DNA from: Multifurca ochricompacta
Taxonomy: Eukaryota > Basidiomycota > Agaricomycetes > Russulales > Russulaceae
Length of the DNA: 64,000 nt
Direction: 5' to 3'
Assembly: GCA_022496185.1 (NCBI GenBank)
Contig: WTXG01000151.1
Location: 24,716 to 88,715, forward strand
Below the pieces are notes generated by a model. It was not told where the DNA came from, ran no database searches, and saw nothing but the letters and a program-made list of their open reading frames with translations. Positions within the stretch are counted from its first letter, which is position 1, and each line of letters starts with the position of its first letter. The translations under genes and the position numbers were made by a program. This document shows positions 40,213 through 61,711 of the stretch, piece after piece.

Positions 40213-40616
40213 TGTCGGAAATGGATCAATATGGCCAGGTCGGATCAATCGCTAAGTGTGTGGTACTAACAAGTGAGTTGTGTGTTGTGCAGTAGCACGC
40301 GGACTGTGTTTCACCTTCCTGTGAATACTTTGATACCTTACTTGATTAGACACAATCCTTTATTGTCTTGGTTACTATAAGCACACTCATTTACAGTATT
40401 TAAGGACACTCTCACTGTACGGTTCACTTCAGTTCTGACCATCACAACTGAAGTGAGTATTCTGTTATCTTATCTTTACCTATGTAGCTAACGCGCACTA
40501 GTTATAACTACCATTCTAGGTAAAGACTAATTAATATACAGTTCTGACCATCACAACTGAATTATAACTACCATTCTAGGTAGTTTGGATTATCTAACCT
40601 CAGGCTGCGTTCTTTA
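40213..40616 (+). mobile_element. Solo copia-type LTR (family F) with intron and spliced copy
   Basis: Flanked by GCATG at 40208-40212 and 40617-40621; starts TGTCGGAAAT. TATTTAAG at 40397 is followed by the hairpin ACTTCAGTT/AACTGAAGT. An intron-like segment at 40453-40501 (GTGAGT ... GCTAAC ... ACTAG, 49 nt) and exon 2 at 40502-40519 come next. The tract at 40539-40579 repeats exon 1 plus exon 2 with the intron precisely absent. The right end is CTTTA rather than the usual CA, so that border is less sure than the TSD. Confidence 0.72.
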
Positions 40617-40677
40617 GCATGTACCCTGACCACATACCAGCAGGTTGGGCCTACCTGTAGTGAACACTACAGGACCC

Positions 40678-40943
40678 CCACCCTCCAGGGTGGGGAAAGG
40701 AAGGAAGAAGTAGATTAATTGGGGACAGCTAGGCACGTTTGCCAGGTCCAGACCCCTTGGTGATGACATGGTTGAGAACCCAACCAGTCAGAAAATGAAA
40801 ACCAAAACACAAAAGTGACAAGTAAAAATAGAAAATGCTGCTAAGCAGCAGGTGTGGGGGCTGGGACAGCCGGCTTCTTGGCACAGGGCAGCTTCTTCCA
40901 ACAATGGACTGCACCAGCATGCCTGAAGGCATAGAGGGTGCAC
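40678..40943. other. Older flanking sequence with GC hairpin
   Basis: Continuation of the sequence into which the hAT-like elements and the copia element inserted. It begins with the inverted repeat CCACCCT/AGGGTGG at about 40675-40692. No gene. Confidence 0.4.
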
Positions 40944-41449
40944 TGTTGACACAGGACGTGTCTGGAGATGCTTCAGGCATCTAAGGTTCGCTTCAGCTGT
41001 AGATTAGATTAAGATTTCGGAGTATCAGACTTTTTATGTTATCTTTATTACATTTCTTTCTCACCTTACTCAGCTGATTAGTGATGGACTTAGTAATGTG
41101 CAGTAAGCATGTGATATCTCTTTAGCCAATAGCCTTTATCCCTCTCTGTTTATTGTCTGGCACTTGTGGACTTATTCCCAGTGCGCACAGACCATTTTCC
41201 CTGGCCCCCATGGGTATATAAGGGTGTCTGTTTTGTCTCTTTCACTTCAGAGTTTCTTCAACCTCTGAAGTGTAAGTCCTTACTATACTTTCTACTTTCC
41301 TTTGACTAACGTCTCTTGTAGATACTTGTCTTTCTAGGTCAGTAGTATAGTTAATAGAGAGTTTCTTCAACCTCTGAAGTATACTTGTCTTTCTAGCCTA
41401 AACCGCTACTAACCACAGTCAGTATAACCAGCAGCATGATTGTTTGACA
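40944..41449 (+). repeat. 5' LTR of copia element A
   Basis: 506 bp with a TATATAAG box at 41215-41222. The downstream part holds the hairpin-intron-spliced copy arrangement annotated separately. It ends directly at the primer-binding site. Confidence 0.93.
41244..41396 (+). other. LTR hairpin, 50-nt intron and precisely intron-less second copy
   Basis: A 28-nt hairpin (ACTTCAGAG stem, 41244-41271) is followed by GTAAGT ... GACTAAC ... CTTGTAG at 41272-41321, a canonical short fungal intron, then exon 2 at 41322-41337. The tract 41358-41396 is identical over 39 nt to exon 1 (from AGAG at 41249) joined to exon 2. The left edge of the second copy falls 34 nt after the TATA box, where transcription should begin. 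Equivalent structures occur at 40430-40579, 55636-56353 (split), 55722-56228, 56414-56568 (minus), 58025 onward, 60134-60291 (minus) and 61264-61424 (minus). Confidence 0.85.
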
Positions 41450-41461
41450 GGTTATGGGCCC
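41450..41461 (+). other. Primer-binding site, half-tRNA-iMet type
   Basis: GGTTATGGGCCC directly after the LTR. This word is the primer site of Drosophila copia, which pairs with an internal part of initiator methionine tRNA near the anticodon rather than its 3' end. The same word follows the LTR end at 58235. Confidence 0.75.
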
Positions 41462-42385
41462 TGCTGCTCATACTGATCTGTTCTTCCCTTTGTTCATCAC
41501 AGCCCAACTCGCTCTTGCACATCAAAGCTCACAAAAGCTTCAAAGTCTTTCCCACTAGCTTCTTCCTGTGAGCTTTCATATTTACTGTCTGTGCACCTTA
41601 ACACCCCACAGGATGACGCAGTTTACTGCTCATCCTGAACTGTTTGGCTAGCCCTTCGGGGTTCTTGCAAAAGGTGATGAGGGACCCTAAGCGGGTGAAA
41701 CACCTTGAGCTCCTTGAGTGCGCACTAGGTATTAGTAATTTCATAGTTGTAGCTGGGTCTTCGTCCCATAGATAGTCTTAGTAGGCCTATAGCCAGAAGC
41801 TTGTGGCTTTAAGTCCAGTCAATGCTTGGCTCTATCTGTAAGCCGGGTTTAGCGACCTGCATGTGGAGTTTAGGGTCTAGAACAAGGCATGGGTAGTCAC
41901 TCCCATGATGCTTAGGCTCGATACAAGTAGGCTGCACTACTATAGTCTATACATAGTAGATATAGTCTTCATCTCTGGGCATAAGCATCCATTGCCTTTG
42001 TAGGGTAACCATGCCCTACCAGAGACAGACTAGACATCTACTTAGTCATGGCCCCAATCATCTAGGGCTTAATCATGGACTCCACCACCAGCATTAGAGG
42101 AAGGGCTATACACCCTTTGTCTCTAATGGAACTTGCAGTTGGCTCCTCCATGACATGACTCCCAGTCTTGTTTACACTAGACACTCTGGCTAGTCTACCA
42201 GAGCTTATGTCTAGTTACAAGATTGCGCTAGACAGCTTTACTATACCTAGAAAGTCGCACAACAAAGGCAGGACCTTCTTAGGTTCTGAAGCATAGTGCC
42301 ACAGTATGGGGTGGCACTCTTAAGTGAGACCTGGGCACTGGTTCTAACTGCTCCTTGGAACCAGGAACACATATAACATCTCACA
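41462..42385 (+). other. Untranslated leader of copia element A
   Basis: About 0.9 kb between primer-binding site and gag start codon with no long open frame. A related leader is found at 58247-58475 and 59918-60081. Confidence 0.6.
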
Positions 42386-42734
42386 ATGCCGTCCTCTATC
42401 GTCTTCCCTCCCTCCTCCAAGATGGAGTGCCTCGATGGGTCCAACTGGCAGGTTTGGTCTGCCAACTTCAACGCCCTTTTGAGGATGAATGGGCTCAGGA
42501 GGCACATTATGACTGCCTACCCTGATATGCCCCTCCTCCCAGAGGATAAAGAAGAAAAGAAAAAATGCAGAAGGAGGTTCTTGATCCCATCCTTAGGGAA
42601 TGGATGGGAGAAGAGGAAATGTTAATTGGGCTACTCTATCTCAATGTAACCCAGGAGGTTTACTCTCAAGTAACCTCTGATGCCGATTATCCTTCTCTTT
42701 TTGAGAAGTATAATAAGTTGGAACGGCTGTATGG
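42386..42734 (+). pseudogene. Copia element A gag, 5' part (disrupted)
   Basis: Starts MPSSIVFPPSSKMECLDGSN and runs through a UBN2-like gag region to KLERLYG, where a foreign LTR splits the codon after TATGG. Within an A-run at about 42560-42566 the frame changes by minus one (RMNGLRRHIMTAYP before, EVLDPILREWMGEEE after). After removal of the insertion the gag frame continues in phase at 51106. Confidence 0.88.
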
Positions 42735-43062
42735 TGTAACGGGTGATGCTCCGTGTACACTTAGTAATCAAGAAGGGCAAAGGTGAAAGTGACCTTTGTC
42801 GTTGGGCGTACCGCAGAGGCAAACATCACGCGTTAAGCAATGACCAGGAACTGTGTCACCCACTGTGGTTTATTCAACCATGATGACGGTGTTCTGAAAC
42901 TGGAAGAAGCTGCAGCCCCAAGAGGACAAGATCCAAAGGATTGAGTCACACAGGGAGGCAGGATACCATTAGCACTATGTATCAAACTCGTGTAGACAGT
43001 TACTCACCTGCAGCCCCAAGAGGACAAGATGGGGGGCTACAGGCTGTTACAGAGGGTCTTAT

Positions 43063-43656
43063 TGTTACGAACCCCGCTACGTCGTCTTACTTTCCTTTTT
43101 CCTCATGTGACACTCTGCTTGGCTCTATTTGCCTCTTTGTTGACTATGTTGCGACCGCCTTTGTACTTGTTTGTTCCTTATCTCTGACTCATGCTGTGCT
43201 TATCTATGACTCATACTTTACGTCAGGACACTTACATATTTTCCCACCAGAATCGCGACTATACCGGATTCGTCTACGTATATTCTCACCTGGCCCACAT
43301 TGACTCCGTTCCCTACTTAGTTACATTATGACTTTGTTGATACATCGAGTACGGTACTCCGATTCAGACTCCGATCTCTATTACGTATATAAGGCCTGCC
43401 TAGATAGCCTGTATACCTTAGACTCGACTTCTTAATTGACTTGGTGCATTACCTTCTGGGTGATTCCTAAGACCTGACTCTTGAATCGTCTCAGTGCTTT
43501 TGGCACTTCTCCGCTCACCAGTACTAAGGGATTAGCTCCTTGGTATTGACTTCTCACCCGAACTTCGTGTACTTGAAAGACAGTATACACTTGACCTCGT
43601 AGTTTCACTATGCGACTTATCACACGTCATGACGAACGCCCGCACCAGGCGTTACA
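43063..43656 (+). repeat. 5' LTR of the gypsy element
   Basis: 594 bp from TGTTACGA to GCGTTACA, with TATATAAGG at about 43386. Compared with the 3' LTR it is 10 bp longer; all the extra bases lie in its first 200 bp. Confidence 0.92.
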
Positions 43657-43678
43657 CTAAGTCGAGTCTCTCCCCACC

Positions 43679-44918
43679 GTGGCTTCATCTAGCTGCAGTC
43701 AGACCTTGCACAACGAGGAGCTCATCGACCGCCGAGACGAGGATAATCTTTCACAACAAGTCCTTGGCTCTGCCGTCTGGAAAGACTTTGAAACCGAGTT
43801 TGGATACTACGTCTATCACGACGACCAGTACCAGCCAGTTGAATACGACGAACAGAAGAGGGTCTGGTACCGTATCCGTTACTCTCGAAGCCATCGTTCC
43901 TGGGTTACCACAGGACCCGCCCCACCAGAGTACGGCCTAGGACCTTGGAGAGAAAATCCTCCAGCCATCATCACAGATTCAGAACCTGAAGAATATATCG
44001 AAGAAAGCAGCGAAGACGCACAAGTCATAGCCACAGATTTTATGGCTCAGACAGTTGCACCCGAGAGTACTGCGTTCAGAACAACTGCTTTAGTCTCTCC
44101 CCAGATTATACGACAAACTTCAGACACCCCAACCATTACCCATCCAACGATGTCCACGATTGCTGCACAGTTACCCAACCCCGCTCCAGTTGTCCCTGCT
44201 CCGAACCTCCCCCGCCATCAGGACGCCTTACGGGGTCCTGCCGACAACATTCACCGGTGACCGATCCCAGAGCAAGAAGTTCATGCTCGAGTTCGAGACG
44301 TTCAAAAACTTTAATCATGACGTCCCGCAGATCGTGAACCCCTTCCAACGAACTAATCTCTTCCTCTCGCTTATCAGAGGAGATTCCGTCGATGATTGGA
44401 CAATGGAGCAGATCGAATGGCTAAATGACAGAGTCACAGCCGGAACCAGAACCACAGACGAGGATCTGTGGGATATAGTGGCGCAAAGATTTAAAGACGC
44501 CTTCACAGATGGGCAGGCCAAACAGAAGGCTGCCAGAGAGCTGAAGTCCCTCAAAATGGAGAGAGGGGATCTAGATGGCTATGTGGCCAAGTTCCGCAAC
44601 CTGGCCAAGAGAGCAGGGTACGATGTGAATGAGGAAGCGACGCTTGACCTCTTCTCCCAGGGATTGCCTAACCCCCTGGTGAAAAACATCATTCAATTCC
44701 ATCACCCTGAGTCATGGAGCCAGTGGACGAGTGCTGCTAGGACGCAGCAGCAGGACTATTTAGACTTCCAGACGCGATTTGGAGTCGACACGAAAAAGGG
44801 CAGAACTCGTGATCAATGGAAAGCAGCGTTTGGGGTAAACCTACTCACCCTAGAGACCCCAACACTATGGACACGTCGGCAGACCGTACCAAGCTCGCGC
44901 AGCTCTTACCGACAATGA
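43679..44918 (+). pseudogene. Gypsy gag (frame-broken)
   Basis: The first frame, 43679-44260, is an N-terminal region. The retrotransposon gag domain follows in another frame from about 44235 (PTTFTGDRSQSKKFMLEFETF, then RFKDAFTDGQAKQKAARELK and GDLDGYVAKFRNLAKRAGYD). Near 44835 a G appears missing (FGG instead of FGVN) before DPNTMDTSADRTK, and near 44905 another base. Both are net minus one. Confidence 0.8.
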
Positions 44919-44919
44919 A

Positions 44920-47900
44920 AAGAAGAATCTTATGAAGGAAGGGCGCTGCTTTCACTGCCGAGCACAAGGGCATATGTCGCGATTCTGCCCAAAGAAGACA
45001 GTCCGAGCTGCAGAAGCAACGGTAGCTGCCACTGCCACGACACCACCAGTGCAGAACCTACCAACCCCAGTAAAAGAAACCCGGTGACTGCCCCAAAGAC
45101 TAAGGAACAGAAGGCAGCAGCAATCTGGGAACACATGATGAACGAAGATGAGGCGGTGCGCGCCTTGATCGTCGACAAGGCCTTTGGCCAAAAGGATTTT
45201 TGATCGGCTCGACCCCATCGGCCTGGGCAAGAGCACTCCATGTAACTTCTGTGTATACTAGTCATTTCAAGTCATTAAAAATACCAGTACATTTTGAAAC
45301 CAAACAGAAGACGGCCGACAGACGAATATTGATCAACTCTGGAGCTACAGACAACTTCATCAGTCAACGACTTCAGAAGACGTTAGGATTGGGGACACAA
45401 TTGCTTCCCCAAGAGAAAAACATTTGGAATATAGACGGAACAGCTAACAAAGCTGGGAAGATCACACATTGCTGTGATCTAGAAGTACAGGTGGGGAGTG
45501 AACGAAGCAGCTCGCTTCCTCATCACAGACCTAGGGAGGAGGATATGGTCCTGGGATACCCATGGCTGGCAGCATTTGAACCCAAGATCAACTGGGCAGA
45601 AGCCACCATGGATAAAGATTTTTATCCCGTCATCATTACGTCCCTCGGATACGACTACGCTGCACGACATCCCATTGTCATGGGATCGGCCGTCACCTGG
45701 AGTGATGTAAGCCTGTGGATCAGGTGTATTGTTATGTTACGAAATCATCAGAACTGGCCCAGGCAGAGGCGCAAAGAACCCAGAAAAGACATTTGAAGAA
45801 GCAGTCCCAGTAGAGTATCATCGCCATTGGAAGGTTTTTCAGAAGAAGAGTCACAACGCTTTCCTCCCTCTCGACCTTGGGATCATGCCATTGACTTCGT
45901 CCCGGACGCCCCGCGATCAGTAGACTGTAAAATCTACCCCCTGTCACAGCCAGAGAAGGAGGCGCTCTCTACCTTCCTGGAAGAACACTTGGAAAAGGAT
46001 ACATACGACCCTCCAACTCGCCCTATGCATCGCCCTTCTTTTCATCAAAAAGAAGGACGGGAAGCTACGACCGGTACAAGACTACAGACGGATCAATGAA
46101 CTACGGTGAAAAATAACTACCCACTCCCTCTGATCTCAGAATTATCGACAAAATGCGTGACAAAGCCCTGTTCTCAAAGATGGACATTCGTTGGGGATAC
46201 AACAACATTCGTATCCGAGAAGGCGACCAGCCCAAAGCCGCCTTCAAGACTAATCAAGGACTCTTCGAACCCAATGTCATGTTCTTTGGCTTGACAAACT
46301 CGCCGGCAACCTTCCAGGCCATGATGAATCACATTTTCCGAGATCTCATCCTCACAGAAGAGGTTGTAGTATATATGGACGATATCCTGGTAGCCACGAA
46401 AGATGACATCCACCACCACCGAGCCCGAGTCCATGAAGTACTAGAAATCCTGGCAAAACACGACCTTTATTTGAAACCTGCCAAATGTTCCTTCGAGCAA
46501 AAGACCGTCGAATATCTAGGTGTTATCCTGGAAGGAGGACAAGTACGCATGGACCCAGTAAAAGTACAAGGCATTCGAGAATGGACCACCCCTCAGTGTA
46601 CCAAAGACGTCAGATCATTCATCGGATTTTGCAATTTCTATCGACGCTTCGTCAAGGGATTTTCCGCTATTGCCCGACCGCTGAACGACTTGTTAAAGAA
46701 GGACATGCCATGGCACTGGGATGAACCACAACAAAGGGCATTTGACCAGATAAAAGCAATTATCAGCTCCGAACCGGTTCTTATCCAACCTGACCTGACC
46801 AAACCCTTCGAACTGGAGGTTGACGCTTCTATGTATGCCAACAGCGCAGTCCTGTCACAAAAAGATATTGGAGGGATTCTTCATCCTGTCGCATTCTATT
46901 CGGAAACGTTCTCGCCAGCAGAAAGAAATTATGACATTTGGGACAGGGAATTGCTAGCTATCGTTAAAGCATTACGACATTGGCGGCCCTATTTGGCTGG
47001 ATCTCCGCAAAAACCATCATCTATACAGACCATTCCAACCTTCTGTACTGGAGAGAACCGCATAAGATCAGTCGACGGATAGCACGAGAAGTCCTGGAGC
47101 TTGAGGAGTATAACTTCACACTCAAACACCTACCCGGAGCTCGTAATGCACGAGCTGACGCCCTGTCTAGACCAACCGGACGAGACGAAGGAGAAAATGA
47201 CAATGACAACATCGTCGTTCTACCGGAAGATGTCTTTGCGAAAACCGCTGTTGTTAGCCTCCATGACATGGATCTATGGGCCCAAGTGACCAAAACATGA
47301 ACCAAGAACTGTGCAAATCTTGGGCAGAGCCGCATAACATAAAGATGAAAGACGGCCTCTGGTGGAAGGACAGCGATCGATTGGTTGTCACCAGTGGCGA
47401 CAACATTAAGAGGGGGGTGATTCATTTTCACCACGACCTTCCCTCTGCAGGACACCCCGCATCGCAAATACTTACGCCCTTGCCAAACGAGACTACTGGT
47501 GGCCCAACATGAAAAAGGATGTTGAAGCATATGTCAAAGGATGTGCCGAGTGCCAGGCAAATAAAGTAAACACTCATCTGAAACCGCCGGCACTTTCACC
47601 CATTACGCCAATCGCAACAGCTCCCTTCCAGACCATCGCTATGGACTTCATCGTTAAACTCCCACAATCACAAGGATACGACTCGATACTCACCATCACG
47701 GACCATGACTGCTCAAAAGCGCCCTCTTCATCCCCTGTAACGAGACAATATCAGCAGAAGGAGTTGCGAAACTCTACCTGGACCATGTCTACCGTCATTA
47801 CGGATTACCGCAGAAGATCATTTCCGACCAAGACCCACGGTTTGCCTCCATGTTCGCCCGGGCCCTCTGTAAACGCCTCGATATCTAACAGAACATATCC

Positions 47901-50518: not shown

Positions 50519-51105
50519 CTTATATACATTTCTCAGTGTAACGAGGTAAGCAATGAGTGTAAGCAAGAATCAGCAAGTATCAGTCAGCTGTATTGCTGAC
50601 TGAGCCTTATCTTTGTGATTCGTAAGCTGCTTTACTCTGCTGACTGATCATGCTCCACAGTGTGATGTCATAATGACGTCACTGTGGAGTAGATAACTGA
50701 TATGTAGTCTAGCCCTTAGGTCTGGAACACGTCTATCTACTGATACATGTGGTTCTGTGCTAAAATTGGCCATGGCCCAACCTGGGCCCTTATCTAGAGC
50801 TCCACTTACCTAGAACCTTCTAGGCTGGACTCCTCTTATCTTGATAACAGCTCCACTTGGTCTAGAACTGTCTAGACTGTGGGGCCTTGCCTATTGTGGT
50901 AAACACAATAGAGAATCGACTTGTTATTGTTGAGTGGCTCTTGTGCTGACTAAGCAGCATGTGACTATTACATGTGACTCGGTCACATGATCCATGTCAC
51001 GACTACATTCCCATGATCACGTGTTGAGACTGCTGGGTAATCTTCCCACAGTCATGTGATCTAAAAGGGAGAAAAGAAAAGGAAAAATAAAGTAGAGCCG
51101 TGACA

Positions 51106-54100
51106 TATGGCTCTGTAGGTAGCATGGCCACATATAATTTGTGGCTTGCCCTGGTGTCCTTCTGTCTTGATGAAGGACAGTCATTCAGGACCCAATTACA
51201 AAAGGTCCTGGATGCCAGGAGTACCCTTAGGGAGAATGGGATGGAGGTCAATGACCTCCAGATGAGCTTTATATTGTTAAAAGCTCTCCCAGATTCCTAC
51301 AGTGCCATTGCTGGCTCCATACTGGCCTCTGGCGATCCAGAGCACCTCTCCCCTCAGGACCTTGTGCAGAGGTTCCTGAATGAGGAAAGTCGCCTGGCGG
51401 GTCCCTCGGGAAGTGGTAGTGCAGTCCTGTCTAAGGCTGCACCTGTCAAATCAAACAAACCAAAAAATTTATCACCACTTCCTGCTGCTGCCCCTGGTTC
51501 ACAAGGGGTGGTCTGCTTCTATTGCCAAAAGCCTGGACACAAGTCCAATGCTTGCGCAAAGAAGAAGAAGGACCTGGAGAATGCCAAAAAGGGCAAGGCA
51601 GGGAACAAGAAGAGGGCTGAGGCCCAACATGTAAATACTATAGCCACTGTAGTTAATGGTAGTGGCAAAATAGAGGAGGTGCATGAAGCACCTTGCATTC
51701 GCCTTTATGTTCACACCTATAATCTGGATATGAATTCAGATTATTGGATGCTTGATAGTGGAGCAACAGCACATTTCAGTCCAAACCTTGAAGACTTTGA
51801 TACATATAAAGTCGACACCACCCATGAAGTATCATTAGGTGACAACTCCATAGTCAAAACAAGTGGAGTTGGAACCGTGGTCATCAAGACTGATCAAGGT
51901 TTTGACTTGGAACTGAGCAATGTGCTCCACATGCCTGGAGGACATAAAATACTCTCCACCAGTGCCCTAGTAGAAAAAGGGGCAACTGTGTTCTTTGATA
52001 ATAAGAAGGCAACAATTAAATATGGCGACAATATTATAGCGGAAGCATGGAAGTTTGGCAAATTGTATTGGGTACTAGGCAAACACGTCCTAAATAGTAT
52101 CCATACAACTGCATCTGCCTCACTAGAAATCTGGCATCAAAGAATGGGCCATATGTCAAAAGAGGCCCTGAAGAGATATGCTCCTGAGGCGGTTAAAGGC
52201 CTCAAAATTAATAATAGCCAAGTGGAAGACAAGCCATGTTATGGCTGTGAAATGGGCAAGTCCCATCGTCTTCCATTTCCCCCATCTTCAAAGCGCGCAT
52301 CAGCCCCCCTTGAGATCCTTCATAGTGATCTTGTAGGTCCCTTGCAGTGCAGTTCAATACAAGGGAATCTATACTTTGCCACCTTCTTGGACGACTTTAG
52401 CAGATACGCTTTAATCGTTCCAATGAAGTCTAAAGATCTGTTCACACCAGTTTTTAATAAACTGAAGACACTACTTGAAAACAAATTTAATCATAAAATC
52501 AAGTGTCTTCATACAGATCGTGGTGGTGAGTATGTGAACAAGGTGCTGAAGGCAATGCTTGAAGATTTTGGCATAGAGCATAAACTTACGATGCCGTATA
52601 GTCCACAACAGAATGGAAGGGCTGAGAGGTTCAATAGAACTATTATGGAAAAAGGCACAAGCATGCTGCACGATGCTGGCCTGTCTCTCGGTTTTTGGGA
52701 GTGTGCTGTTGAAACAGCATGTCATATATATAACAGAACTCCCATTCGTTCTAATAAGTGGAAAACTCTGCTTGAGCTTCTGGTTGGGAACAAACCAGAT
52801 GTCTCGTATTTCAAGGTCTTTGGTTGCAAAGCCTTTTATCATGTTCCAGAGGGCAAGCGGTGTAAATTAGATCCCAAAGCAAGGGAAGCCGTCTTTGTCA
52901 GGTATGAGCCCACTTCCAAGGGCTATACACTTTGGGATAGTCGTACCCAGTCTCTCATCTCTTCACGAGATGTTACATTTGATGAGAGATCCTTCCCATC
53001 CCGCTCTGATAAGGACAACAGAGCAGATAAATCCATAGAGCAACCTACTGAAGGTGGCTCATTTACTTTACCTGGTGGCAATGTCCAGCCACCACCAACA
53101 GCAGCTACGCATGTTCCTGAGGTCCCTCAGCATGAGGAGCACCTGGAAGAGGAACAGGAGGACATCGTACCTCCTCAATTAGCACCACAGCCTACCACAC
53201 CCACACGTAATGTAGACACCACACACCCTCAGACTATATATCAGACCCCTCCATCTCAAATCATGGAACCATCCTCCCCTCCCAAAAGAACCAAAGCAAT
53301 CAGAAAATCACAAAGGATTGCAGACAGAATTCCTCAACCTAATTTTCAGAGGACAAGTCCATGCTCTGAACGACGAGATAGGGCAATCCAAGAAGATTTA
53401 GACTTGGATACTGCATGTCCCAATCGCAATCGTCATCTGAATCCTCGCTTCTACAACGAGGATAATGCAGAGTTTGTGCAAGGTTCTTCCAGACTTGGTC
53501 AGATGGATCTACTTAATGCTGCAGGATCGCCTTATAGGGATCCTCTTACATTTAAAGAAGCAATGGAGTCTGATAATGCCAGTGATTGGCTTGAGGCATG
53601 TCAATATGAAATTGATGCCTTAGAAAAACTTAAAGTGTGGCACCTTGAAGACCTTCCTGAAGGTAGAAAGGCTGTAAAGTCCAAATGGGTCTTTAAATTG
53701 AAAGCAGATGGATGCTTTTGTGCTAGGCTTGTAGCAAAAGGGTTCACCCAAATAGAGGGGGTGGACTTCGATGAAACATTCTCCCCAGTTGCCAGGTTTG
53801 AGTCTCTTAGACTGTTATTAGCATTGGCCATGCTTGAGGATTGGGAAATCCACCAGATGGATGTCAAATCGGCATTCCTACATGGCGATCTGGATGAGGA
53901 GATATATATGGAGCAACCTGTTGGTTTCGTCGTTGCTGGACAAGAGTCCAAAGTTTGTAGGCTACAGAAGGCTCTGTATGGCCTCAAACAAGCTTCCCAA
54001 GCATGGAACTTGCAATTCCATGCAGTTCTCAATGAACTGAGCTTTACTTGGACGTACTCTGATGCAGGAGTATATGTGTATCATCACCAAGAGGGGGATG

Positions 54101-55083
54101 GTTCACTTTTCATCATTTTATATGTTGATGACATCACTATACTTGGGTCCTCCACTAAGAAGATTCAATGGCTGAAGGACTCTCTATCTAGCCGATATGA
54201 GATGACTGATCTTGGCGAAATCCAGTCCTACCTTGGAGTTAACATCACCAGGGACCGTCCTAACAAGACACTGGATATTGACCAGACAGCCTATGTGTCC
54301 TCAATAGTTGAGAGGTTTGGAATGGGGGATTCCAACCCAGTATATACTCCTCTACCCTCTGGCGTGGATGTTCATTTGGTCAAGTTTGAAGACCAAGCAT
54401 CTACCTCTGATATCAAGAGGTATCAGCAGTTAATGGGGTCTCTGCTTTGGGTGCAGATTGGAAGCAGACCTGACATTAGTTTTGCTGTTGCACGCCTTAG
54501 CCAATTTGCTTCCAACCCTTCCCAGCAGCACATGCGACTAGCAAAGTATGTCTTAGCTTATCTAAATGCTACAAAGGACTACAAGTTGCGCTATTCTGGA
54601 GGGAATGGTGAAGTTGGCCTTCATGGCTTTGCGGACTCCTCATGGGGAGATCAAGAGGACTGCCACTCCACCTCAGGCTATGTCTTTTTCCTTGCTAATG
54701 GAGCCATCAGTTGGTGCTCCAGGAAACAAAAGACAGTAGTGCAGTCCACCACAGAAGCTGAGTATATGAGCCTAGCAGAGGCTTCAAATCAGGCTGCGTG
54801 GTACAGGACATTCATGCAGGAGTTGGGATATGAAGTTAGTTCACCCATACAACTGCATTGTGACAATAAGGGTGCAGTAGATCTTGCATTAAACCCTGTC
54901 ACAGGAAGGCAATCAAAGCACATACCAATAAAGTACCATGCCATTAGGGAGTATGTAGAATCACACCAGATAGACTTGGTGAGAACTCCCACTGGAGAGA
55001 TGCTAGCAGATGGCCTTACAAAGTCTCTGCCTAGATCATCTTTTGATCACATGGTAACTGGATTTGGACTAGTGCTGGAATGA
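51106..55083 (+). CDS. Copia element A gag-pol polyprotein (3' part of gag, protease, integrase, RT, RNase H), open
   Basis: Uninterrupted frame of about 1325 codons that resumes gag after element B (YGSVGSMATYNLWLALVSF). Zinc knuckle CFYCQKPGHKSNAC near 51510. Protease DSGATAHFSP near 51755. Pre-integrase HQRMGHMSKEAL, then CYGCEMGKS. Integrase acidic residues lie in LHSDLVGP, LHTDRGGEY and the NGRAERFNRT block. Reverse transcriptase (SKWVFKLKADG, HQMDVKSAFLHG, ILYVDDITILG near 54120) and RNase H (GFADSSWGDQED, STTEAEYMSLAEA) complete it. Domain order and motifs look intact, so the enzyme part could still function if supplied with gag; the split start prevents its own expression. Confidence 0.95.
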   Translation, partial: YGSVGSMATYNLWLALVSFCLDEGQSFRTQLQKVLDARSTLRENGMEVNDLQMSFILLKALPDSYSAIAGSILASGDPEHLSPQDLVQRFLNEESRLAGPSGSGSAVLSKAAPVKSNKPKNLSPLPAAAPGSQGVVCFYCQKPGHKSNACAKKKKDLENAKKGKAGNKKRAEAQHVNTIATVVNGSGKIEEVHEAPCIRLYVHTYNLDMNSDYWMLDSGATAHFSPNLEDFDTYKVDTTHEVSLGDNSIVKTSGVGTVVIKTDQGFDLELSNVLHMPGGHKILSTSALVEKGATVFFDNKKATIKYGDNIIAEAWKFGKLYWVLGKHVLNSIHTTASASLEIWHQRMGHMSKEALKRYAPEAVKGLKINNSQVEDKPCYGCEMGKSHRLPFPPSSKRASAPLEILHSDLVGPLQCSSIQGNLYFATFLDDFSRYALIVPMKSKDLFTPVFNKLKTLLENKFNHKIKCLHTDRGGEYVNKVLKAMLEDFGIEHKLTMPYSPQQNGRAERFNRTIMEKGTSMLHDAGLSLGFWECAVETACHIYNRTPIRSNKWKTLLELLVGNKPDVSYFKVFGCKAFYHVPEGKRCKLDPKAREAVFVRYEPTSKGYTLWDSRTQSLISSRDVTFDERSFPSRSDKDNRADKSIEQPTEGGSFTLPGGNVQPPPTAATHVPEVPQHEEHLEEEQEDIVPPQLAPQPTTPTRNVDTTHPQTIYQTPPSQIMEPSSPPKRTKAIRKSQRIADRIPQPNFQRTSPCSERRDRAIQEDLDLDTACPNRNRHLNPRFYNEDNAEFVQGSSRLGQMDLLNAAGSPYRDPLTFKEAMESDNASDWLEACQYEIDALEKLKVWHLEDLPEGRKAVKSKWVFKLKADGCFCARLVAKGFTQIEGVDFDETFSPVARFESLRLLLALAMLEDWEIHQMDVKSAFLHGDLDEEIYMEQPVGFVVAGQESKVCRLQKALYGLKQASQAWNLQFHAVLNELSFTWTYSDAGVYVYHHQEGDGSLFIILYVDDITILGSSTKKIQWLKDSLSSRYEMTDLGEIQSYLGVNITRDRPNKTLDIDQTAYVSSIVERFGMGDSNPVYTPLPSGVDVHLVKFEDQASTSDIKRYQQLMGSLLWVQIGSRPDISFAVARLSQFASNPSQQHMRLAKYVLAYLNATKDYKLRYSGGNGEVGLHGFADSSWGDQEDCHSTSGYVFFLANGAISWCSRKQKTVVQSTTEAEYMSLAEASNQAAWYRTFMQELGYEVSSPIQLHCDNKGAVDLALNPVTGRQSKHIPIKYHAIREYVESHQIDLVRTPTGEMLADGLTKSLPRSSFDHMVTGFGLVLE

Positions 55084-55335: not shown

Positions 55336-56353
55336 TGTTGACACAGGACGTGTCTGGAGATGCTTCAGGCATCTAAGGTTCACTTCAGCTGTAGATTAGA
55401 TTAAGATTTCGGAGTATCGGACTTTTTATGTTATCTTTATTACATTTCTTTCTCACCTTACTCAGCTGATTAGTGATGGACTTAGTAATGCGCAGTAAGC
55501 ATGTGATATCTCTTTAGCCAATAGCCTTTATCCCTCTCTGTTTATTGTCCAGCACTTGTGGACTTATTCCCAGTGCGCACAGACCATTTTCCCTGGCCCC
55601 CATGGGTATATAAGGGTGTCTGTTTTGTCTCTTTCACTTCAGAGTTTCTTCAACCTCTGAAGTGTAAGTCCTTACTATACTTTCTACTTTCCTTTGACTA
55701 ATGTCTCTTGTAGATACTTGTTGTTGACACGGGACATGTCTGGAGATGCTTCAGGCATCTAAGTTTCGCTTCAGCTGTAGATTAGATTAGATTAGATTCC
55801 GGAGTATCGGACTTTTTATGTTATCTTTATTACACTTCTTTCCCTTCTTACTCAGCTGATTAGTGATGGACTTAGTAATGCGCAGTAAGCATGTGATATC
55901 TCATTAGCCAATGGCCTTTATCCCTCTTTGTTTATTGTCCGGCACTTGTGGACTTATTCCCAGTGCGCACAGACCATTTTCCCTGGCCCCCATGGGTATA
56001 TAAGGGTGTCTGTTTCGTGTCTTTCACTTCAGAGTTTCTTCAACCTCTGAAGTGTAAGTCTTACTATACTTTCTACTTTCCTTTGACTAACATCTCTTGT
56101 AGATACTTGTCTTTCTAGGTCAGTAGTATAGTTAACAGAGTTTCTTCAACCTCTGAAGTATACTTGTCTTTCTAGCCTAACCCGCTACTAACCACAGTTA
56201 GTATAACCAGCAGCATAATTGTTTGACACTTGTCTTTCTAGGTCAGTAGTATAGTTAATAGAGAGTTTCTTCAACCTCTGAAGTATACTTGTCTTTCTAG
56301 CCTAAACCGCTACTAACCACAGTCAGTATAACCAGCAGCATGATTGTTTGACA
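55336..56353 (+). repeat. 3' LTR of copia element A, split by a solo LTR
   Basis: The two pieces, 55336-55721 and 56234-56353, together match the 5' LTR with few substitutions. Its own intron-like segment is 55664-55713. The split lies in exon 2 of the leader structure. Confidence 0.92.
55722..56228 (+). mobile_element. Solo LTR of the same copia family inside the 3' LTR
   Basis: 507 bp, TGTTGACAC to TTTGACA, flanked by CTTGT at 55717-55721 and 56229-56233. It carries the same hairpin-intron (56054-56102)-spliced copy structure. Confidence 0.92.
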
Positions 56354-56360
56354 TGCACTG

Positions 56361-56855
56361 TGTGAAACAGGCAAGGTGCACAGCATACTGACTGTAAAGG
56401 TTAGCAAGTTAGGCTAGAAACAAGTTATACTTCAGAGACAAAGAAAACTCTATATTACTATACTACACACCTAGAAACAAGTTATCTACAAGAGACAGTT
56501 AGTTATAGGTAAGGTAGTAAGTAGAGAGAGTGGGACTTACACTTCAGAGACAAAGAAAACTCTGAAGTGTAAGAGACAAAACAGACACCCTTATATACAA
56601 TCCAAGGGATGGTCTGTGCACTGGGAATAAGTCCACAAGTGCTGGACAAAGTCCAAACAATAAACATGAGGGAGAAAAGCCATTGGCTATTACAGAAATC
56701 ACATGTTACATGGTGCATCAGTCAGCTACTGCGGAATGTGAGAAAGAAAGTAATAATGATAATGTAAAAAGTCCAAAACTCCAGTATCTAATCTGATCTA
56801 CAAAGTAGCTAATCTAATCACCTGAAGCATCACTGAACATCTTCTGTGTTCAACA
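56361..56855 (-). repeat. Copia subfamily B LTR (3' LTR, minus strand)
   Basis: 495 bp from TGTTGAACACAG (minus-strand start) to its end at 56361, next to a purine tract on its upstream side. Contains the leader structure: hairpin 56541-56568, intron 56486-56540, exon 2 at 56471-56485, and a 38-nt intron-less copy at 56414-56451 that is identical to the predicted spliced product. Confidence 0.85.
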
Positions 56856-57115: not shown

Positions 57116-57605
57116 TCATTCCAGCATAAGTCCAAGTCCATTGACCATGGTTTCAAACAATGCTCTTGGTAGAGACTTAGTGAAGCCATCTGCCAGCATT
57201 TCACCTGTGGGGGTACGCACTAACTCAATTATGTGCAATTCAATGTACCCCCTAATGGCATGGTACTTGATAGGTATATGCTTTGACCGCCTTCCTGTGA
57301 CTGGGTTTAATGCCAAATCTATGGCACCCTTATTGTCACAATGGAGTAGAATAGGGGAGGATACCTCGTACCCTAATTCCTCCATAAAAGTCCTATACCA
57401 CGCCACCTGATTTGCAGCCTCAGAGAGGCTCATATACTCGGCTTCAGTGGTGGACTGTGCTACTGTTTTCTGCTTTCTGGAACACCATGAAATGGCACCA
57501 TTTGCCAGGAAAAACACGTAGCCTGAGGTGGAGCAGCAGTCCTCTTGATCTCCCCATGAGGAATCTGCAAAGCCATGAAGGCCACTCTCCCCATTCCCTC
57601 CAGAG
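57116..57605 (-). pseudogene. Copia subfamily B pol fragment (RNase H and C-terminus)
   Basis: Reads SGGNGESGLHGFADSSWGDQ through STTEAEYMSLSEA and HIPIKYHAIRGYIE to a natural stop. The upstream part is cut off at 57605 by a plus-strand LTR of the same subfamily, so the junction is a rearrangement rather than a simple insertion (no matching target duplication). Confidence 0.85.
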
Positions 57606-57995
57606 TGTTGAACACAGAAGATGTTCGGTGATGCTTCAGGCATCAGGTGATTAGATTAGCTACTTTGTAGATCAGATTAGATACCGGAGTTTCGGACTTT
57701 TTACATTATCATTATTACTTTCTTTCTCACATTCCGCAGTAGCTGACTGATGCACCATGTAACATGTGATTTCTGTAATAGCCAATGGCTTTTCTCCCTC
57801 ATGTTTATTGTTTGGACTTTGTCCAGCACTTGTGGACTTATTCCCAGTGCACAGACCATCCCTTGGATTGTATATAAGGGTGTCTGTTTTGTCTCTTACA
57901 CTTCAGAGTTTTCTTTGTCTCTGAAGTATAACTTGTTTCTAGCCTAACTTGCTAACCTTTACAGTCAGTATGCTGTGCACCTTGCCTGTTTCACA
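57606..57995 (+). repeat. Copia subfamily B LTR lacking the intron tract (390 bp)
   Basis: Starts TGTTGAACACAG and ends TGTTTCACA like the 495-bp LTR. It has a single hairpin followed directly by exon 2 and the downstream part: the intron, the first exon 2 and the linker are absent as one precise block of about 105 bp. Either recombination between the two tract copies or reverse transcription of a spliced leader would give this. Confidence 0.8.
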
Positions 57996-58234
57996 TATAT
58001 AAGGGTGTCTGTTTTGTCTCTTTCACTTCAGAGTTCTTCTAACCTCTGAAGTGTAAGTTCCCTTTACTATACTCTTCTTTTTACCTTTAACTAACCGTCT
58101 TATGTAGACTACTTGTTTTCTAGGCCAGTAGTATAGTTGTAATAGAGTTCTTCTAACCTCTGAAGTACTACTTGTTTTCTAGCCTAACACACTACTAACC
58201 ACAGTCAGTATAACCAGCAGCATGATTGTTTGAC
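57996..58234 (+). repeat. Copia subfamily C LTR, 3' part
   Basis: Begins at its TATA box (TATATAAGGG) directly behind the subfamily B LTR. It contains hairpin 58025-58052, intron 58053-58107 (GTAAGT ... AACTAAC ... TGTAG) and the intron-less second copy, and ends TTTGACA before a PBS at 58235. Confidence 0.8.
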
Positions 58235-60081
58235 AGGTTATGGGCCCTGCCACTCATACTGACTGATTTATTCCCTCTGTTCATCAAACAGCCCAACTCA
58301 CTCTTGCACATCAAGCTCACAAAAGCTTCAAAGTCTTTCCCACCAGCTTCTTCCAGTGAGCTTTTCTATTTACCGTCTGTGCACCTTAACACCCCACAGG
58401 ATGAGACAGCTTGCTGCTCATCCTGAACTGTCTGGCTAGCCCTTCAGGGTTCTTGCAAAAGGTGATGAGGGACCCTAAGCAGGTAGGGATCAGCAAGGGT
58501 TTTCATACCCGCGCGGGTAAGCGCCGCGGGTTTTGACGGGTACAGGTATGGGTATACAACTCCCAACCCGCCAGAAACCCGTACCCATGCAGCGGGTTTG
58601 GTGGGTATAAGTGGTCATCAGTCATTGACAAGATCAGCAGAAATGTAATGATAAAATACATCTGTAGCAAACAAATGACAAGATTAAATTTGATGTATGC
58701 TACAGGGCTTCTGTAAATATATTCTAGTGTTATCCTATGAAATATCAAAGCAGATCAACAGTGCGATGTAAAATAAAAGTGTTATCAGTGATCCACTCTC
58801 TTGAAAATCATGATGCAACTGTTTTATTAATGCGCGATCAATTCTGCCGGTCTGGCACTATCTAAAATACACTCTAGACTACTTTAGACTATTCTATAAT
58901 CTAATTATCAATTTATTTTACTGAAACAAGGCCCGCGTGTATCTACAGGCTGCATAGAGCAGCGACTACATTGCATCGCATGGACCAGCATATTGGTCTG
59001 ATCTCCTTCCTATTAAGGAAGGTTGACTTAACAATCACGGCTTTGATTTTCCATTGGTCCGACAAGATTGTGATCACGCATAGATAACACAACAAAAACG
59101 CGTTCACAAATTAATTAGATACATAGAATATACATCTAAGATCTGACATATGATCAAATTACATCATTAAATGAGATAACGAGATAATGCGTTCATTTAA
59201 TCTAGTAGCTGATATAGTACATCTAAAGTACAAGCCTGCGCCATGCCTGTTCCACAAAATGAAATAAAATAATAATGTAAATAAAGAATAAACTTAATCT
59301 TCTGAACATAAATCAGCAATTATTGAGGGATCCTGAGTAGCCACAAATGAACGCGTTGTATCCAAGTGCATATCTCCTTGACCGGGATGGACCGGGCCGG
59401 GTGTCCGAAATGCGCGATGCAAGTAAAGAACTTGCACGCGTTTCATTTTATGGGTAACCTGGGTATCAAAACAAATATCCAGGGGTTACCCCTGCCAATC
59501 ACTATGCATTTGTCAATTATTTTTGCATTCTATGCAGTTATCTGACAGGCTTTTCATCAATGTTCTATAACATCTATCTAATCATCTTTGTATATTGAGG
59601 TGGATTTTAGTTGCGCTTGTATAAAATTGAAACCAGAATAATAAAACAACAATAGAATAATGAATTATCTTAATCTTATGAATATAAAACAGGAATCTTT
59701 GAAGGATCCTGAGTAGCCACAAATGAACGCATTGTGCATCTCCTTGACCGGGATGGCCTGGGCCGGTTATCCGAAATGCGCGATGCAAGCAAAAAACTTG
59801 CACGCGTTTACACAGGTAACCCGCGGGTTACCCGTACCCGTAGCAACGGGTACGGGTACGGGTACGGGTACCAATGAAGATACCCGGGGGTTACCCCTGC
59901 TATTCACTATAAGCAGGTGAAACACCTTGAGCTCCTTGAGTGCACACTAGGTATTAGTAACTTCATAGTTGTAGCTGGGTTTTCATCCCATAGATAGTCT
60001 TAGTAGGCCTATAGCCAGAAGCTTGTGGCTTTAAGTCCAGTCAATGCTTGGCTCCATCTGTAAGCCAGGTTTAGTGACCCG
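58235..60081 (+). mobile_element. Copia subfamily C leader (PBS and untranslated region), split by a hAT-like element
   Basis: GGTTATGGGCCC at 58235 and the following 240 bp, then 59918-60081, correspond to 41450-41860 of element A. It is cut off at 60081 by a minus-strand LTR. No coding sequence remains. Confidence 0.75.
58484..59909. mobile_element. hAT-like non-autonomous element (1.43 kb) with 8-bp TSD
   Basis: Flanked by TAAGCAGG (58476-58483 and 59910-59917). Ends TAGGGATCAGCAAGGG and, reverse-complemented, TAGTGAATAGCAGGGG. It contains GGTACG tandem words near 59838-59872 and an internal duplication of about 190 bp (around 59265-59460 and 59640-59815, sharing GGATCCTGAGTAGCCAC). No transposase. 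Confidence 0.82.
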
Positions 60082-60585
60082 TGTAAAACAGGCATGAAGC
60101 ACAGCATACTGACTGTGTGTTAGCGGGTAAGGCTAGATGAAGACAAGTTAACTTCAGAGGTAGAAGAAACTCTATTATACTATACTACTGACCTAGACGA
60201 AGACAAGTTACTACTAAGAGCATTAGTCTCAAGGTATGATAGTAAGTAAGAGAAGGGACTTACACTTCAGAGGTAGAAGAAACTCTGAAGTGTAAGAGAC
60301 AAAACAGACACCCTTATATACTCTTCAAGGGATGGTCTGTGCACTGGGAATAAGTCCTCAAGTGCCAGACAAAGTCCAAACAATAAACATGAGGGAGAAA
60401 GGCCATTGGCCACTACAGAAATCACATGTTACATGGTGCATCAGTCAGCTACTGCAGAATGTGAGAAAGAAAGTAATAATGATAATGTAAAAAGTCTGGA
60501 ACTCCGGTATCTAATCTAATCTACAAAGTAGCTAATCTAATCACCTGATGCCTGAAGCATCACCAAACATCTTCTGTGTTCAACA
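60082..60585 (-). repeat. Copia subfamily D LTR (3' LTR, minus strand)
   Basis: 504 bp. Hairpin 60264-60291, intron 60211-60263 (GTAAGT ... GACTAAT ... AGTAG on the minus strand), and an intron-less copy at about 60132-60173 that differs from the predicted spliced product by one base. Confidence 0.85.
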
Positions 60586-60844
60586 TCCCTCCATGCTGAA
60601 GGCATCTGGTCATGGATGGAAATGAGTTGAATGAGCACACTGCCATCACAATTGAATGAGCATATTGCCAGCCAGAGATCCAACTTCTCTAACTCTCAAG
60701 TGCAGTTTGTGAGCTTTGCATACAAGTTGTATATTTGCTTATGCAAACTCACACCACTTGCGTCACTCTTGAGGTCAAGAATGTGCTCATATGGCATGGT
60801 GGGAAAGTGAAACTGGTATTCACAGTCTCCAAATTCCAGCTCTC

Positions 60845-61213
60845 TCATTCCAGCATAAGTCCAAGTTCATTAACCATGGTTTCGAACGATGCTCTTGGTA
60901 GAGACTTAGTGAAGCCATCTGCCAGCATCTCACCTGTGGGGGTACGCACTAACTCAATTATGTGCGATTCAATGTACCCCCTAATGGCATGATATTTGAT
61001 AGGTATATGCTTTGACCGCCTTCCTGTGACTGGGTTTAATGCCAAATCTATGGCACCCTTATTGTCACAATGGAGTAGTATAGGGGAGGATACCTCATAC
61101 CCTAGTTCTTCCATAAAAGTCCTATACCATGCCGCCTGATTTGCAGCCTCAGAGAGGCTCATATACTTGGCTTCAGTGGTGGACTGTGCTACTGTTTTCT
61201 GCTTTCTGGAACA
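60845..61213 (-). pseudogene. Copia subfamily D pol C-terminal fragment
   Basis: RNase H end: AEAKYMSLSEA-like start, HCDNKGAIDLALNPVTGRRS, HIPIKYHAIRG, then a natural stop. Truncated at 61213 by the LTR of another element. Confidence 0.85.
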
Positions 61214-61711
61214 TGAAGAACAGGCATGTGCATGCAGTGGTACTGACTGTAGTTAGCGTATAAGGCTAGAAGAACAAGTTATACTTCAGAGATGAAGAAA
61301 ACTCTATATTACTATACTACACACCTAGAAGAACAAGTTATCTACAAGAGACGGTTAGTTATAGGTAAGGTAGTAAGTAGAGAGACTGGGACTTACACTT
61401 CAGAGATGAAGAAAACTCTGAAGTGTAAGAGACGAAACAGACACCCTTATATACTCTTCAAGGGATGGTCTGTGCGCAATGGAATATGCTAGAATGTACT
61501 ACTGAGGGACTAAGGCCATTGGCCAGTGAGATATCACATGCTACATAGGATTACTAAGGTACATCAGTCAGCTGCTGCGCATCGCGAGAAAGAAAGTAAT
61601 AATGATATGGTAAAAAGTCCGAGACTCCAAATCTTTATCTAATCTAATCTTGCACAGCTTAGACCCTAACCCAGATGCCTGAAGCACCTCAAGACACATA
61701 CCATGTCAACA
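61214..61711 (-). repeat. Copia subfamily E LTR (3' LTR, minus strand)
   Basis: 498 bp, followed on its upstream side by a purine tract at 61712. Hairpin 61397-61424, intron 61342-61396, and an intron-less second copy near 61264-61303 identical to the predicted spliced product. Confidence 0.85.

What the first reader, a model, noticed from the sequence alone, without database searches (positions are those of the whole stretch)
40430..61424. Copia-type LTRs contain a spliceosomal-type intron followed by a precisely intron-less copy of the same leader
In seven full or partial LTRs from six subfamilies, the region just after the TATA box is exon 1 (hairpin), a 49-55 nt segment with GT(A/G)AGT donor, CTAAC/CTAAT branch site and TAG acceptor, then exon 2. 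About 20 nt later the exon1-exon2 tract recurs with exactly that segment missing (41249-41337 versus 41358-41396; 40430-40519 versus 40539-40579; minus-strand 56471-56563 versus 56414-56451). The left edge of the second copy falls about 33 nt after the TATA box, where RNA should start. This looks like the spliced 5' end of the element's own RNA written back into the LTR by reverse transcription. I know of no described element with this arrangement; the mechanism is inference.
Basis: partly seen in the sequence, partly recalled or inferred. Interest (0 to 1): 0.92.

Follow-up and report, generated by a model that had tools for sequence, protein, structure and literature searches.

The report
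Retrotransposon keeps intron through landing pad
In a mushroom genome, a large family of jumping genes carries introns inside its end repeats and appears to keep them through every jump, because a ready-spliced copy of the start of its RNA sits next to the intron as a place for the new DNA strand to land; introns are normally expected to be lost when such elements copy themselves through RNA.

Summary
Confirmed and extended. In Ty1/copia elements of a Russulaceae mushroom (very probably Multifurca ochricompacta) the LTR reads U3-TATA-E1-intron1-E2-spacer-E1E2-U5. E1-intron1-E2-GT has 1249 exact pattern matches in the genome. In 61 of 65 parsed LTRs the second copy equals the spliced first copy (2 substitutions, 2 indels in 2527 sites; 31 exon strings). 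On a tree from other LTR parts, at least 117 of about 120 exon changes are shared by both copies (control 16%). The copies differ less than the two LTRs of one element (0.08% vs 0.41%), so copy 2 is apparently rewritten at each transposition. The nucleotide before copy 2 varies between elements but agrees within 9 of 10 LTR pairs: a strand-transfer scar. My addition: spacer plus copy 2 is itself a second intron (GTNNGT...TAG, 55-61 nt). Doubly spliced RNA (E1E2-U5) gives a strong-stop cDNA that lands exactly on copy 2 of the unspliced 3' LTR and regenerates everything; growth or single-loss products have 1, 1 and 0 matches. No RNA data were available; splicing and start site are inferred. Ten paper searches listed no description of it.

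The parts
40944..41449 (+). complete copia LTR (506 bp, TGTTGACA...TTTGACA) holding the structure
   Evidence: repeat D2 starts at 40944; PBS follows
41215..41222 (+). TATA box (TATATAAG), 34 nt before exon 1
41249..41271 (+). exon 1 (E1), inferred RNA 5' end at 41249
41272..41321 (+). intron 1 (GTAAGT...CTAAC...TTGTAG, 50 nt)
41322..41337 (+). exon 2 (E2), ends CTAG, followed by GTCAGT
41338..41396 (+). proposed intron 2: spacer 41338-41357 plus intron-less copy 41358-41396 (GTCAGT...TTTCTAG, 59 nt)
   Evidence: inference
41358..41396 (+). intron-less copy of E1+E2 (proposed landing pad for minus-strand strong-stop cDNA)
41397..41449 (+). U5 to LTR end
41450..41461 (+). primer binding site GGTTATGGGCCC (copia-type, inner part of initiator tRNA-Met; tRNA sequence recalled)
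40430..40579 (+). second LTR lineage (family A): E1 40430-40452, intron 1 40453-40501, E2 40502-40519, spacer 40520-40538, intron-less copy 40539-40579; exon sequence not alike the others by inspection apart from CTGAA, same plan
55641..56300 (+). LTR (starting at 55336) interrupted by a nested solo LTR: E1 55641-55663, intron 1 55664-55713, start of E2 55714-55721, target duplication plus rest of E2 56229-56241, spacer 56242-56261, intron-less copy 56262-56300; by position the 3' LTR of the copia element with the frame 51100-55083 (inference)
55722..56228 (+). nested solo LTR with the structure (E1 56031-56053, intron 1 56054-56102, E2 56103-56118, intron-less copy 56137-56175), target duplication CTTGT
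56361..56855 (-). intron-bearing LTR: E1 56563-56541, intron 1 56540-56486, E2 56485-56471, spacer 56470-56452, intron-less copy 56451-56414
57606..57995 (+). simple LTR: TATA 57871, E1 57905-57927 joined directly to E2 57928-57942 and U5 57943-57995; 380 of 383 aligned bases identical to the LTR at 56361-56855, with one 112-nt and one 7-nt gap
58030..58182 (+). intron-bearing leader: E1 58030-58052, intron 1 58053-58107, E2 58108-58123, spacer 58124-58143 (GCCAGT in place of the GT donor), intron-less copy 58144-58182; PBS at 58236
60133..60286 (-). intron-bearing leader: E1 60286-60264, intron 1 60263-60211, E2 60210-60193, spacer 60192-60174, intron-less copy 60173-60133 (one G/A difference)
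61266..61419 (-). intron-bearing leader: E1 61419-61397, intron 1 61396-61342, E2 61341-61325, spacer 61324-61306, intron-less copy 61305-61266
51100..55083 (+). open frame of a copia polyprotein (gag-pre-integrase, integrase, RVT_2), upstream of ATGGAGGGA (PPT) at the LTR starting at 55336

Best explanation
These copia elements replicate from an RNA that is spliced twice inside its own R region. Transcription starts at E1 in the 5' LTR. The spliceosome removes intron 1 (between E1 and E2) and intron 2 (spacer plus the intron-less copy), leaving E1-E2-U5-PBS. Minus-strand strong-stop cDNA made on this RNA is E1E2-U5, identical to the last part of the LTR. At the first strand transfer it pairs with the intron-less copy in the unspliced 3' LTR, and synthesis continues through the spacer, E2, intron 1, E1 and U3. 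The new LTR therefore has both introns back, and its intron-less copy is a fresh transcript of the spliced E1E2. The intron-less copy is a landing pad that lets an LTR element keep introns in its R region through retrotransposition. Shown by sequence: the arrangement, exact edges, mirrored evolution, junction scar, shared state of paired LTRs. Inferred: start site, both splicing events, identity of the packaged RNA, and that the 3' LTR escapes splicing.
For: Copy 2 equals spliced E1E2 in 61 of 65 LTRs, 2 substitutions and 2 indels in 2527 sites, 31 exon strings; 200 random re-pairings give 6.8 exact on average, at most 12 (the parser asked for E1' within 5 mismatches of E1 and for a donor within one substitution). 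Parsimony on 60 LTRs: 122 steps in copy 1, 119 in copy 2, 124 jointly, so at least 117 shared (98%), control columns of intron 1 16%, at most 21%. GTAAGT 65/65, CTAAY 65/65, TAG acceptor 65/65 (acceptor not asked for by the parser), intron 1 48-56 nt. Copy 1 is followed by GTNNGT in 63 of 65, in three versions (GTCAGT 52, GTGTGT 10, GTATGT 1), proposed intron 2 55-61 nt; in the mismatch-based scan the copied tract ends exactly at TAG in 46 of 48 rows. Copy divergence 2/2527 is below 5'/3' LTR divergence 9/2203 (11 pairs). Nucleotide before copy 2: T32 C24 A6 G3, before copy 1 always C; most variable of 244 columns in the 17-LTR group (0.68, mean 0.055), top in one of two 4-LTR groups; equal in both LTRs in 9 of 10 pairs with the same exons. 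Genome patterns: intron 1 with E2|GT 1249, intron 1 with E2|CC 4, no intron 1 with E2|GT 0, no intron 1 with E2|CC 34, alternative-acceptor product 0, growth product 1, unspliced landing 1. A second lineage has the same plan; 39 other matches (the best 40 of 560 candidates were scored, one is the window itself) cover the whole structure at 94-100% identity, and two of them flank a RVT_2 match on contig C76.
Against: No RNA reads, no start-site map, no packaged RNA. Intron 2 has no branch motif common to all variants by inspection, GTCAGT is not an ideal donor, one LTR has GCCAGT, and the TAG at the end of E2 was used by the script to set that end, so only speaks for it independently. A planned comparison with host introns failed and was not repeated. 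The model needs the 3' LTR to stay unspliced although intron 1 is complete there. The 34 simple LTRs do not prove double splicing: a deletion between the direct repeats E1 and E1' gives the same sequence. The junction column is not the most variable one in one of three groups. A 66th LTR (L055 at 56) was left out; its copy 2 lacks one T, so it would be a fifth imperfect one. The pattern does not include copy 2. All letters come from one genome and 65 LTRs, chosen mostly through the best RT matches and one LTR query.
Confidence: 0.78

Rival explanations
1. Transcription starts at the intron-less copy, which is an ordinary R; the upstream intron-bearing copy is only part of U3. Strong-stop lands on the intron-less copy as in any LTR element.
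For: Would also explain the hypervariable nucleotide before copy 2 and the simple LTRs by landing on E1.
Against: Gives no path for at least 117 shared changes or for 61 of 65 exact copies; the TATA box lies 33-34 nt before E1 and by inspection none lies at that distance before copy 2; does not explain donor, branch and acceptor at the missing segment.
Confidence: 0.06
2. One-off write-back: the spliced leader was copied into the LTR once in an ancestor; both copies are since kept alike by selection for pairing with the strong-stop cDNA or by DNA gene conversion.
For: One origin is plausible because all subfamilies seen and a second lineage share the plan.
Against: 31 exon strings, 61 of 65 LTRs with exact copies, copy divergence not above insertion age; conversion would have to act on tracts of about 23 and 14-18 nt while hardly ever carrying intron 1 or the spacer across (one genome match each).
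Confidence: 0.05
3. Only intron 1 is spliced; spacer plus copy 2 is not an intron, and copying works by a different transfer geometry.
For: No common branch motif seen; donor GTCAGT or GTGTGT, once GCCAGT.
Against: Single splicing predicts LTR growth or loss of intron 1 alone, 1 and 0 genome matches against 1249; GTNNGT kept in 63 of 65; right edge of copying exactly at TAG in 46 of 48 rows.
Confidence: 0.1
4. Tandem duplication followed by insertion of a non-intron sequence into the first copy, or assembly artefact.
For: None found.
Against: In the scan, which did not ask for splice signals, all seven junctions of the window fall at GTRAGT/AG; 1428 matches to TATA-E1-GTAAGT in the assembly and like structure in paired LTRs.
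Confidence: 0.01

Closest known systems
Drosophila copia and the Ty1/copia superfamily (Pseudoviridae)
   Same: Integrase before RVT_2, about 500-bp TG..CA LTRs, 5-bp target duplications, PPT, and a PBS matching the middle of initiator tRNA-Met as recalled for copia.
   Different: I know of no intron in their R regions (recalled). Copia splices out 2.9 kb of pol to make a gag RNA (PMC3735527, passage); that its unspliced RNA replicates is recalled.
BARE1 of barley
   Same: Copia element with a small spliced intron (104 nt).
   Different: The intron lies just beyond the gag domain and serves translation; the authors state that retrotransposons must avoid packaging and reverse transcription of spliced RNA and find only the unspliced R-bearing RNA in particles (PMC3735527, passages). 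Here the spliced RNA appears to be the one copied.
Ogre, EVADE and other intron-bearing LTR elements
   Same: Spliced subgenomic RNAs (PMC12786077, passages).
   Different: No intron in the LTR and no intron-less twin is mentioned in the passages seen.
Intron-loss assay (intron-marked TyH3, 1985)
   Same: Splicing of the RNA intermediate followed by reverse transcription (PMC12786077, passage).
   Different: There the intron is lost in the new copy, the classic proof of an RNA intermediate; here it would be lost and restored in the same cycle.
Retroviruses with a splice donor in R (HTLV, spumaviruses; recalled)
   Same: Splice donor close to the RNA start inside the LTR.
   Different: Acceptors lie far downstream and the unspliced RNA is the genome (recalled).

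Membership tests
Ty1/copia LTR retrotransposon | RVT_2 reverse transcriptase, integrase upstream of it | tested here: met
   window 51100-55080: rve 401-502, RVT_2 845-1085, 1.1e-79; 150 scored RVT_2 matches of 1159 candidates in the genome
Ty1/copia LTR retrotransposon | paired LTRs, TG..CA, short target duplication, PBS and PPT | tested here: met
   43 LTR rows: 42 are 495-514 bp (one fused row 630), 5-bp duplication in 7, PBS directly after in 7, ATGGAGGGA directly before in 29; 13 LTR pairs about 6 kb apart, 10 with identical exon strings
Spliceosomal intron (intron 1) | GT donor, branch site, AG acceptor | tested here: met
   GTAAGT 65/65 (parser allowed one substitution), CTAAY 65/65, TAG 65/65, 48-56 nt; one truncated LTR outside the set has ATAAGT
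Spliceosomal intron (intron 1) | resembles introns of host genes | not tested
   the comparison failed and was not repeated
Spliceosomal intron (intron 1) | removed from RNA | not testable with these tools
   no RNA data; exact absence in copy 2 is indirect evidence
Spliceosomal intron (intron 2) | GT donor and AG acceptor | tested here: met
   GT in 64 of 65 (one GC), GTNNGT in 63 of 65; copied tract ends at TAG in 46 of 48 rows
Spliceosomal intron (intron 2) | branch site | tested here: inconclusive
   no motif common to all variants by inspection of the strings; no score computed
Spliceosomal intron (intron 2) | removed from RNA | not testable with these tools
   inferred from near absence of growth products and from the right edge of the copy
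Standard LTR replication (single R at both RNA ends) | RNA 5' end and 3' end share one colinear R | tested here: inconclusive
   the usual LTR here has two R-like tracts; the strand-transfer scar lies at the second; RNA ends not mapped

The most novel reading that the evidence does not exclude
A natural LTR-retrotransposon lineage in which the spliceosome is an obligatory part of the replication cycle: only doubly spliced genomic RNA yields a strong-stop cDNA that fits the landing pad, so introns in R are removed and restored in every round, and the LTR stores both the unspliced and the spliced form of its leader. Intron 2 would be a self-renewing intron made of the element's own spliced leader, and the rarity of simple LTRs (34 pattern matches against 1249) would mean that the introns are kept by selection.
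Probability: 0.7. Interest if true: 0.88.

Novelty: new variant of a known kind. Interest (0 to 1): 0.83.

Why it matters
Loss of introns on passage through RNA is the classic signature of retrotransposition, and workers on a copia element state that replicating RNA must avoid splicing. An element family that splices its replicating RNA inside R and still transmits the introns would show a way round that rule, with over a thousand intron-bearing LTRs in one genome. It gives a built-in recorder: each LTR holds the genomic leader and the splice product of its last cycle, so splice-site choice, RNA start and non-templated nucleotides at strand transfer can be read from genome sequence alone. It also raises a testable question: why is the 3' copy of the same intron not spliced?

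Tried and rejected
Non-intron insertion or chance: rejected. Start at copy 2: rejected by shared changes and TATA position. An alternative downstream acceptor for intron 2 (CTAAC...ACAG in U5): its product has 0 matches, so it is not used in the replicating RNA. I first took the 34 simple LTRs as proof of double splicing; the alignment in the window shows one 112-nt gap between direct repeats, so a repeat-mediated deletion is equally possible, and I demoted it. Two pairs of simple-LTR matches lie about one element length apart on one strand with a RVT_2 match between (C246:168853/174817, C94:16101/21955), which would place the loss before or during integration there; their letters were not seen. 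Relatives elsewhere: no match in viral contigs; protein relatives exist in the protein database, but no scan of metagenome contigs was allowed, so their LTRs were not seen. Ten paper searches ran (one search was rejected for a character); none of the listings shows a description of an intron within LTRs with an intron-less twin. Passages only were read of PMC3735527, PMC5542766, PMC12786077 and PMC7550596; the other papers were seen as listings with the start of the abstract. The library lacks most subscription journals. The parser rejected 105 regex matches and that output was cut; an independent census by TATA box (within 3 substitutions of TATATAAGGGTGT) met 61 parsed LTRs, 3 true LTRs not parsed (one split, one truncated with a mutated donor, one simple), 2 chance matches, and 36 TATA-like matches without E1 behind them, one of which is a truncated LTR with an exact copy. 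In that census no intact LTR with a disagreeing copy was dropped; 5 parsed LTRs lack the TATA match. 19 of the 20 fetched element regions had at least one parsed LTR; L053 had none. The odds of the main reading were lowered from 0.80 to 0.78 on checking, because the TAG end of E2 is set by the script.
Full report
WHERE IT IS. The window lies in a 53.8-Mb assembly of 605 contigs, on a contig of 88,715 bases. A thymidylate synthase named as Multifurca ochricompacta sits on a contig of exactly 88,715 bases and is 97% identical over 78% of the window's frame, so the organism is very probably this mushroom of the Russulaceae. The genome has 1159 candidate copia reverse transcriptases, of which the best 150 were scored and all pass the cut-off.

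THE OBSERVATION. A scan that knew nothing of introns found seven places in the window where a contiguous tract X+Y recurs upstream as X-gap-Y with a single unambiguous junction and a gap GT(A/G)AGT...AG; other groups that it printed come from nested and tandem repeats, and shuffles gave nothing comparable. An eighth LTR is split by a nested solo LTR but has the same parts. The order is U3, TATA box, E1 (22-23 nt), intron 1 (48-56 nt), E2 (14-18 nt), spacer (about 17-22 nt), E1E2 without gap, U5 of about 53 nt, LTR end, and in 5' LTRs the PBS.

HOW GENERAL. I fetched 20 of the 150 listed element regions, plus short loci from two searches. 19 of the 20 regions carry the structure, and 13 regions have two such LTRs about 6 kb apart. 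Genome-wide, TATA-E1-GTAAGT has 1428 exact matches and its reversed control none; E1-intron 1-E2-GT has 1249 (this pattern does not include copy 2). On the 66 parsed LTRs these two patterns match 55 and 62, so both counts are underestimates. A second lineage with different exon sequence (window 40430) shows the same plan; the 39 other matches among the best 40 of 560 candidates cover the whole structure at 94-100% identity.

THE TWO COPIES EVOLVE AS ONE. Of 66 parsed LTRs 65 were compared. Copy 2 is exactly E1+E2 in 61; the total difference is 2 substitutions and 2 indels in 2527 sites, although there are 31 different exon strings and LTRs differ from one another by 4.6% substitutions and 2.8 gaps per pair in copy 1. 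The one left out (L055 at 56) lacks one T in copy 2. On a tree built from U3 end, intron 1, spacer and U5 (60 LTRs), copy 1 needs 122 changes, copy 2 119, and both together only 124, so at least 117 changes are shared; columns of intron 1 used as a control share 16%, at most 21%. The copies differ less (0.08%) than the two LTRs of one element (9 of 2203 sites, 0.41%, over the 11 of 13 pairs under 6%). So copy 2 was made from copy 1 at or about the last transposition of each element.

THE SCAR. The base before E1 in copy 1 is C in 65 of 65. The base before copy 2 is T in 32, C in 24, A in 6, G in 3. Among 17 LTRs of different elements with the same exons it is the most variable of 244 columns (0.68, mean 0.055); it is top in one group of 4 and not in another group of 4. 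Yet it agrees in both LTRs in 9 of the 10 pairs with equal exons; the tenth involves the misread L055. That is what a non-templated nucleotide at the 3' end of strong-stop cDNA, fixed at first strand transfer, would leave; C can also come from a start one base upstream. Untidy cDNA ends are recalled for Ty1; I did not find a paper on them here.

WHY TWO INTRONS. If only intron 1 were spliced, strong-stop cDNA would be E1E2-spacer-E1'E2'-U5. Landing on E1' would add a unit each cycle; landing on E1 would delete intron 1 alone. The genome has 1 match to the first product (the pattern covers only LTRs with GTCAGTAG, its first part matching 52 of the 66 parsed LTRs) and 0 to the second. If both intron 1 and spacer+copy 2 are removed, the cDNA is E1E2-U5, which fits copy 2 and U5 without a break and restores the whole LTR. 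The right edge of the copied tract is exactly TAG in 46 of 48 rows of the mismatch-based scan, and what follows E2 in copy 1 is GTNNGT in 63 of 65, in three versions. Unspliced landing on copy 2 has 1 match. Weak points are the missing common branch motif and the GTCAGT donor.

SIMPLE LTRs. 34 matches have U3-E1E2 followed by CC, with neither intron nor twin (a looser pattern gives 37), against 4 with intron 1 but E2|CC. One is in the window (57606-57995), 380 of 383 bases like its intron-bearing neighbour apart from a 112-nt and a 7-nt gap. They fit landing of E1E2-U5 on E1 instead of E1', or deletion between the repeats; the sequence cannot tell which. That they stay at about 2.6% (34 of 1287) suggests that the introns pay their way; this is inference.

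WHAT IS NOT KNOWN. No RNA was seen. Why intron 1 of the 3' LTR survives is open; I propose that polyadenylation within copy 2 removes the acceptor of intron 2 and outruns splicing of intron 1 (inference). The origin of the arrangement and its spread outside this genome could not be tested: no match in viral contigs and no access to relatives' DNA. A comparison with host introns failed.

NOVELTY. The element is a copia member by the features tested. Introns of the LTR elements in the passages read are internal and serve subgenomic RNAs; the BARE authors state that spliced RNA must be kept out of replication. Ten searches of an open-access library listed no description of an intron-bearing LTR with an intron-less twin; subscription journals are mostly absent from it. 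I rate it a new variant of a known kind, with a replication step that I have not seen described.

Noticed in passing
L046 (36/6049), L048 (49/6083), L056 (29/6025): Three of 13 LTR pairs about 6 kb apart have 5' and 3' LTRs with different exon strings, which normal replication should not give; recombinant elements or neighbours.
   Followed up: no
window 41398-41406 and equivalents: The first bases of U5, three to five after copy 2, are also very variable between near-identical LTRs (CCTAACCCGC, CCTCACCGC, CCTTACACGC ...; columns +42 and +44 in the 17-LTR group). Unexplained.
   Followed up: no
window 41409-41418: U5 keeps CTAA(C/T) and shortly after it a (A/G)CAG-type end before TCAGTAT in nearly all LTRs listed, like a third 3' splice site; its splice product is absent from LTRs (0 matches). 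It may serve an mRNA that does not replicate.
   Followed up: partly
L008 2439-2537 (+): A relative of the 40430 lineage with a simple, intron-less leader (TATTTAAGGACA...E1E2 directly followed by GTAGTGCTTATCTAACC): simple LTR of the second lineage or its ancestral form.
   Followed up: partly
window 55722-56228: Solo LTR inserted into exon 2 of another LTR of the same kind, with target duplication CTTGT.
   Followed up: yes
window 57996: The simple LTR is followed without a gap by TATATAAGG of the next LTR, whose upstream U3 is missing; the flanks of the simple LTR show no target duplication.
   Followed up: partly
L042 about 780-950 (-): Truncated LTR fragment starting within intron 1 that still has E2, spacer and exact intron-less copy.
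   Followed up: partly
L041 1-330 and L055 about 6556-6800 (-): Tandem arrays of a roughly 56-61-bp unit beside copia elements.
   Followed up: no
window 44160-47082: Ty3-type element pieces (Retrotrans_gag, RVT_1, RNase H) beside the copia elements.
   Followed up: no
window 174-839 (-), 9666-10328 (+), 36529-37146 (+): Host genes: G-protein alpha subunit, thymidylate synthase, cytochrome P450.
   Followed up: partly
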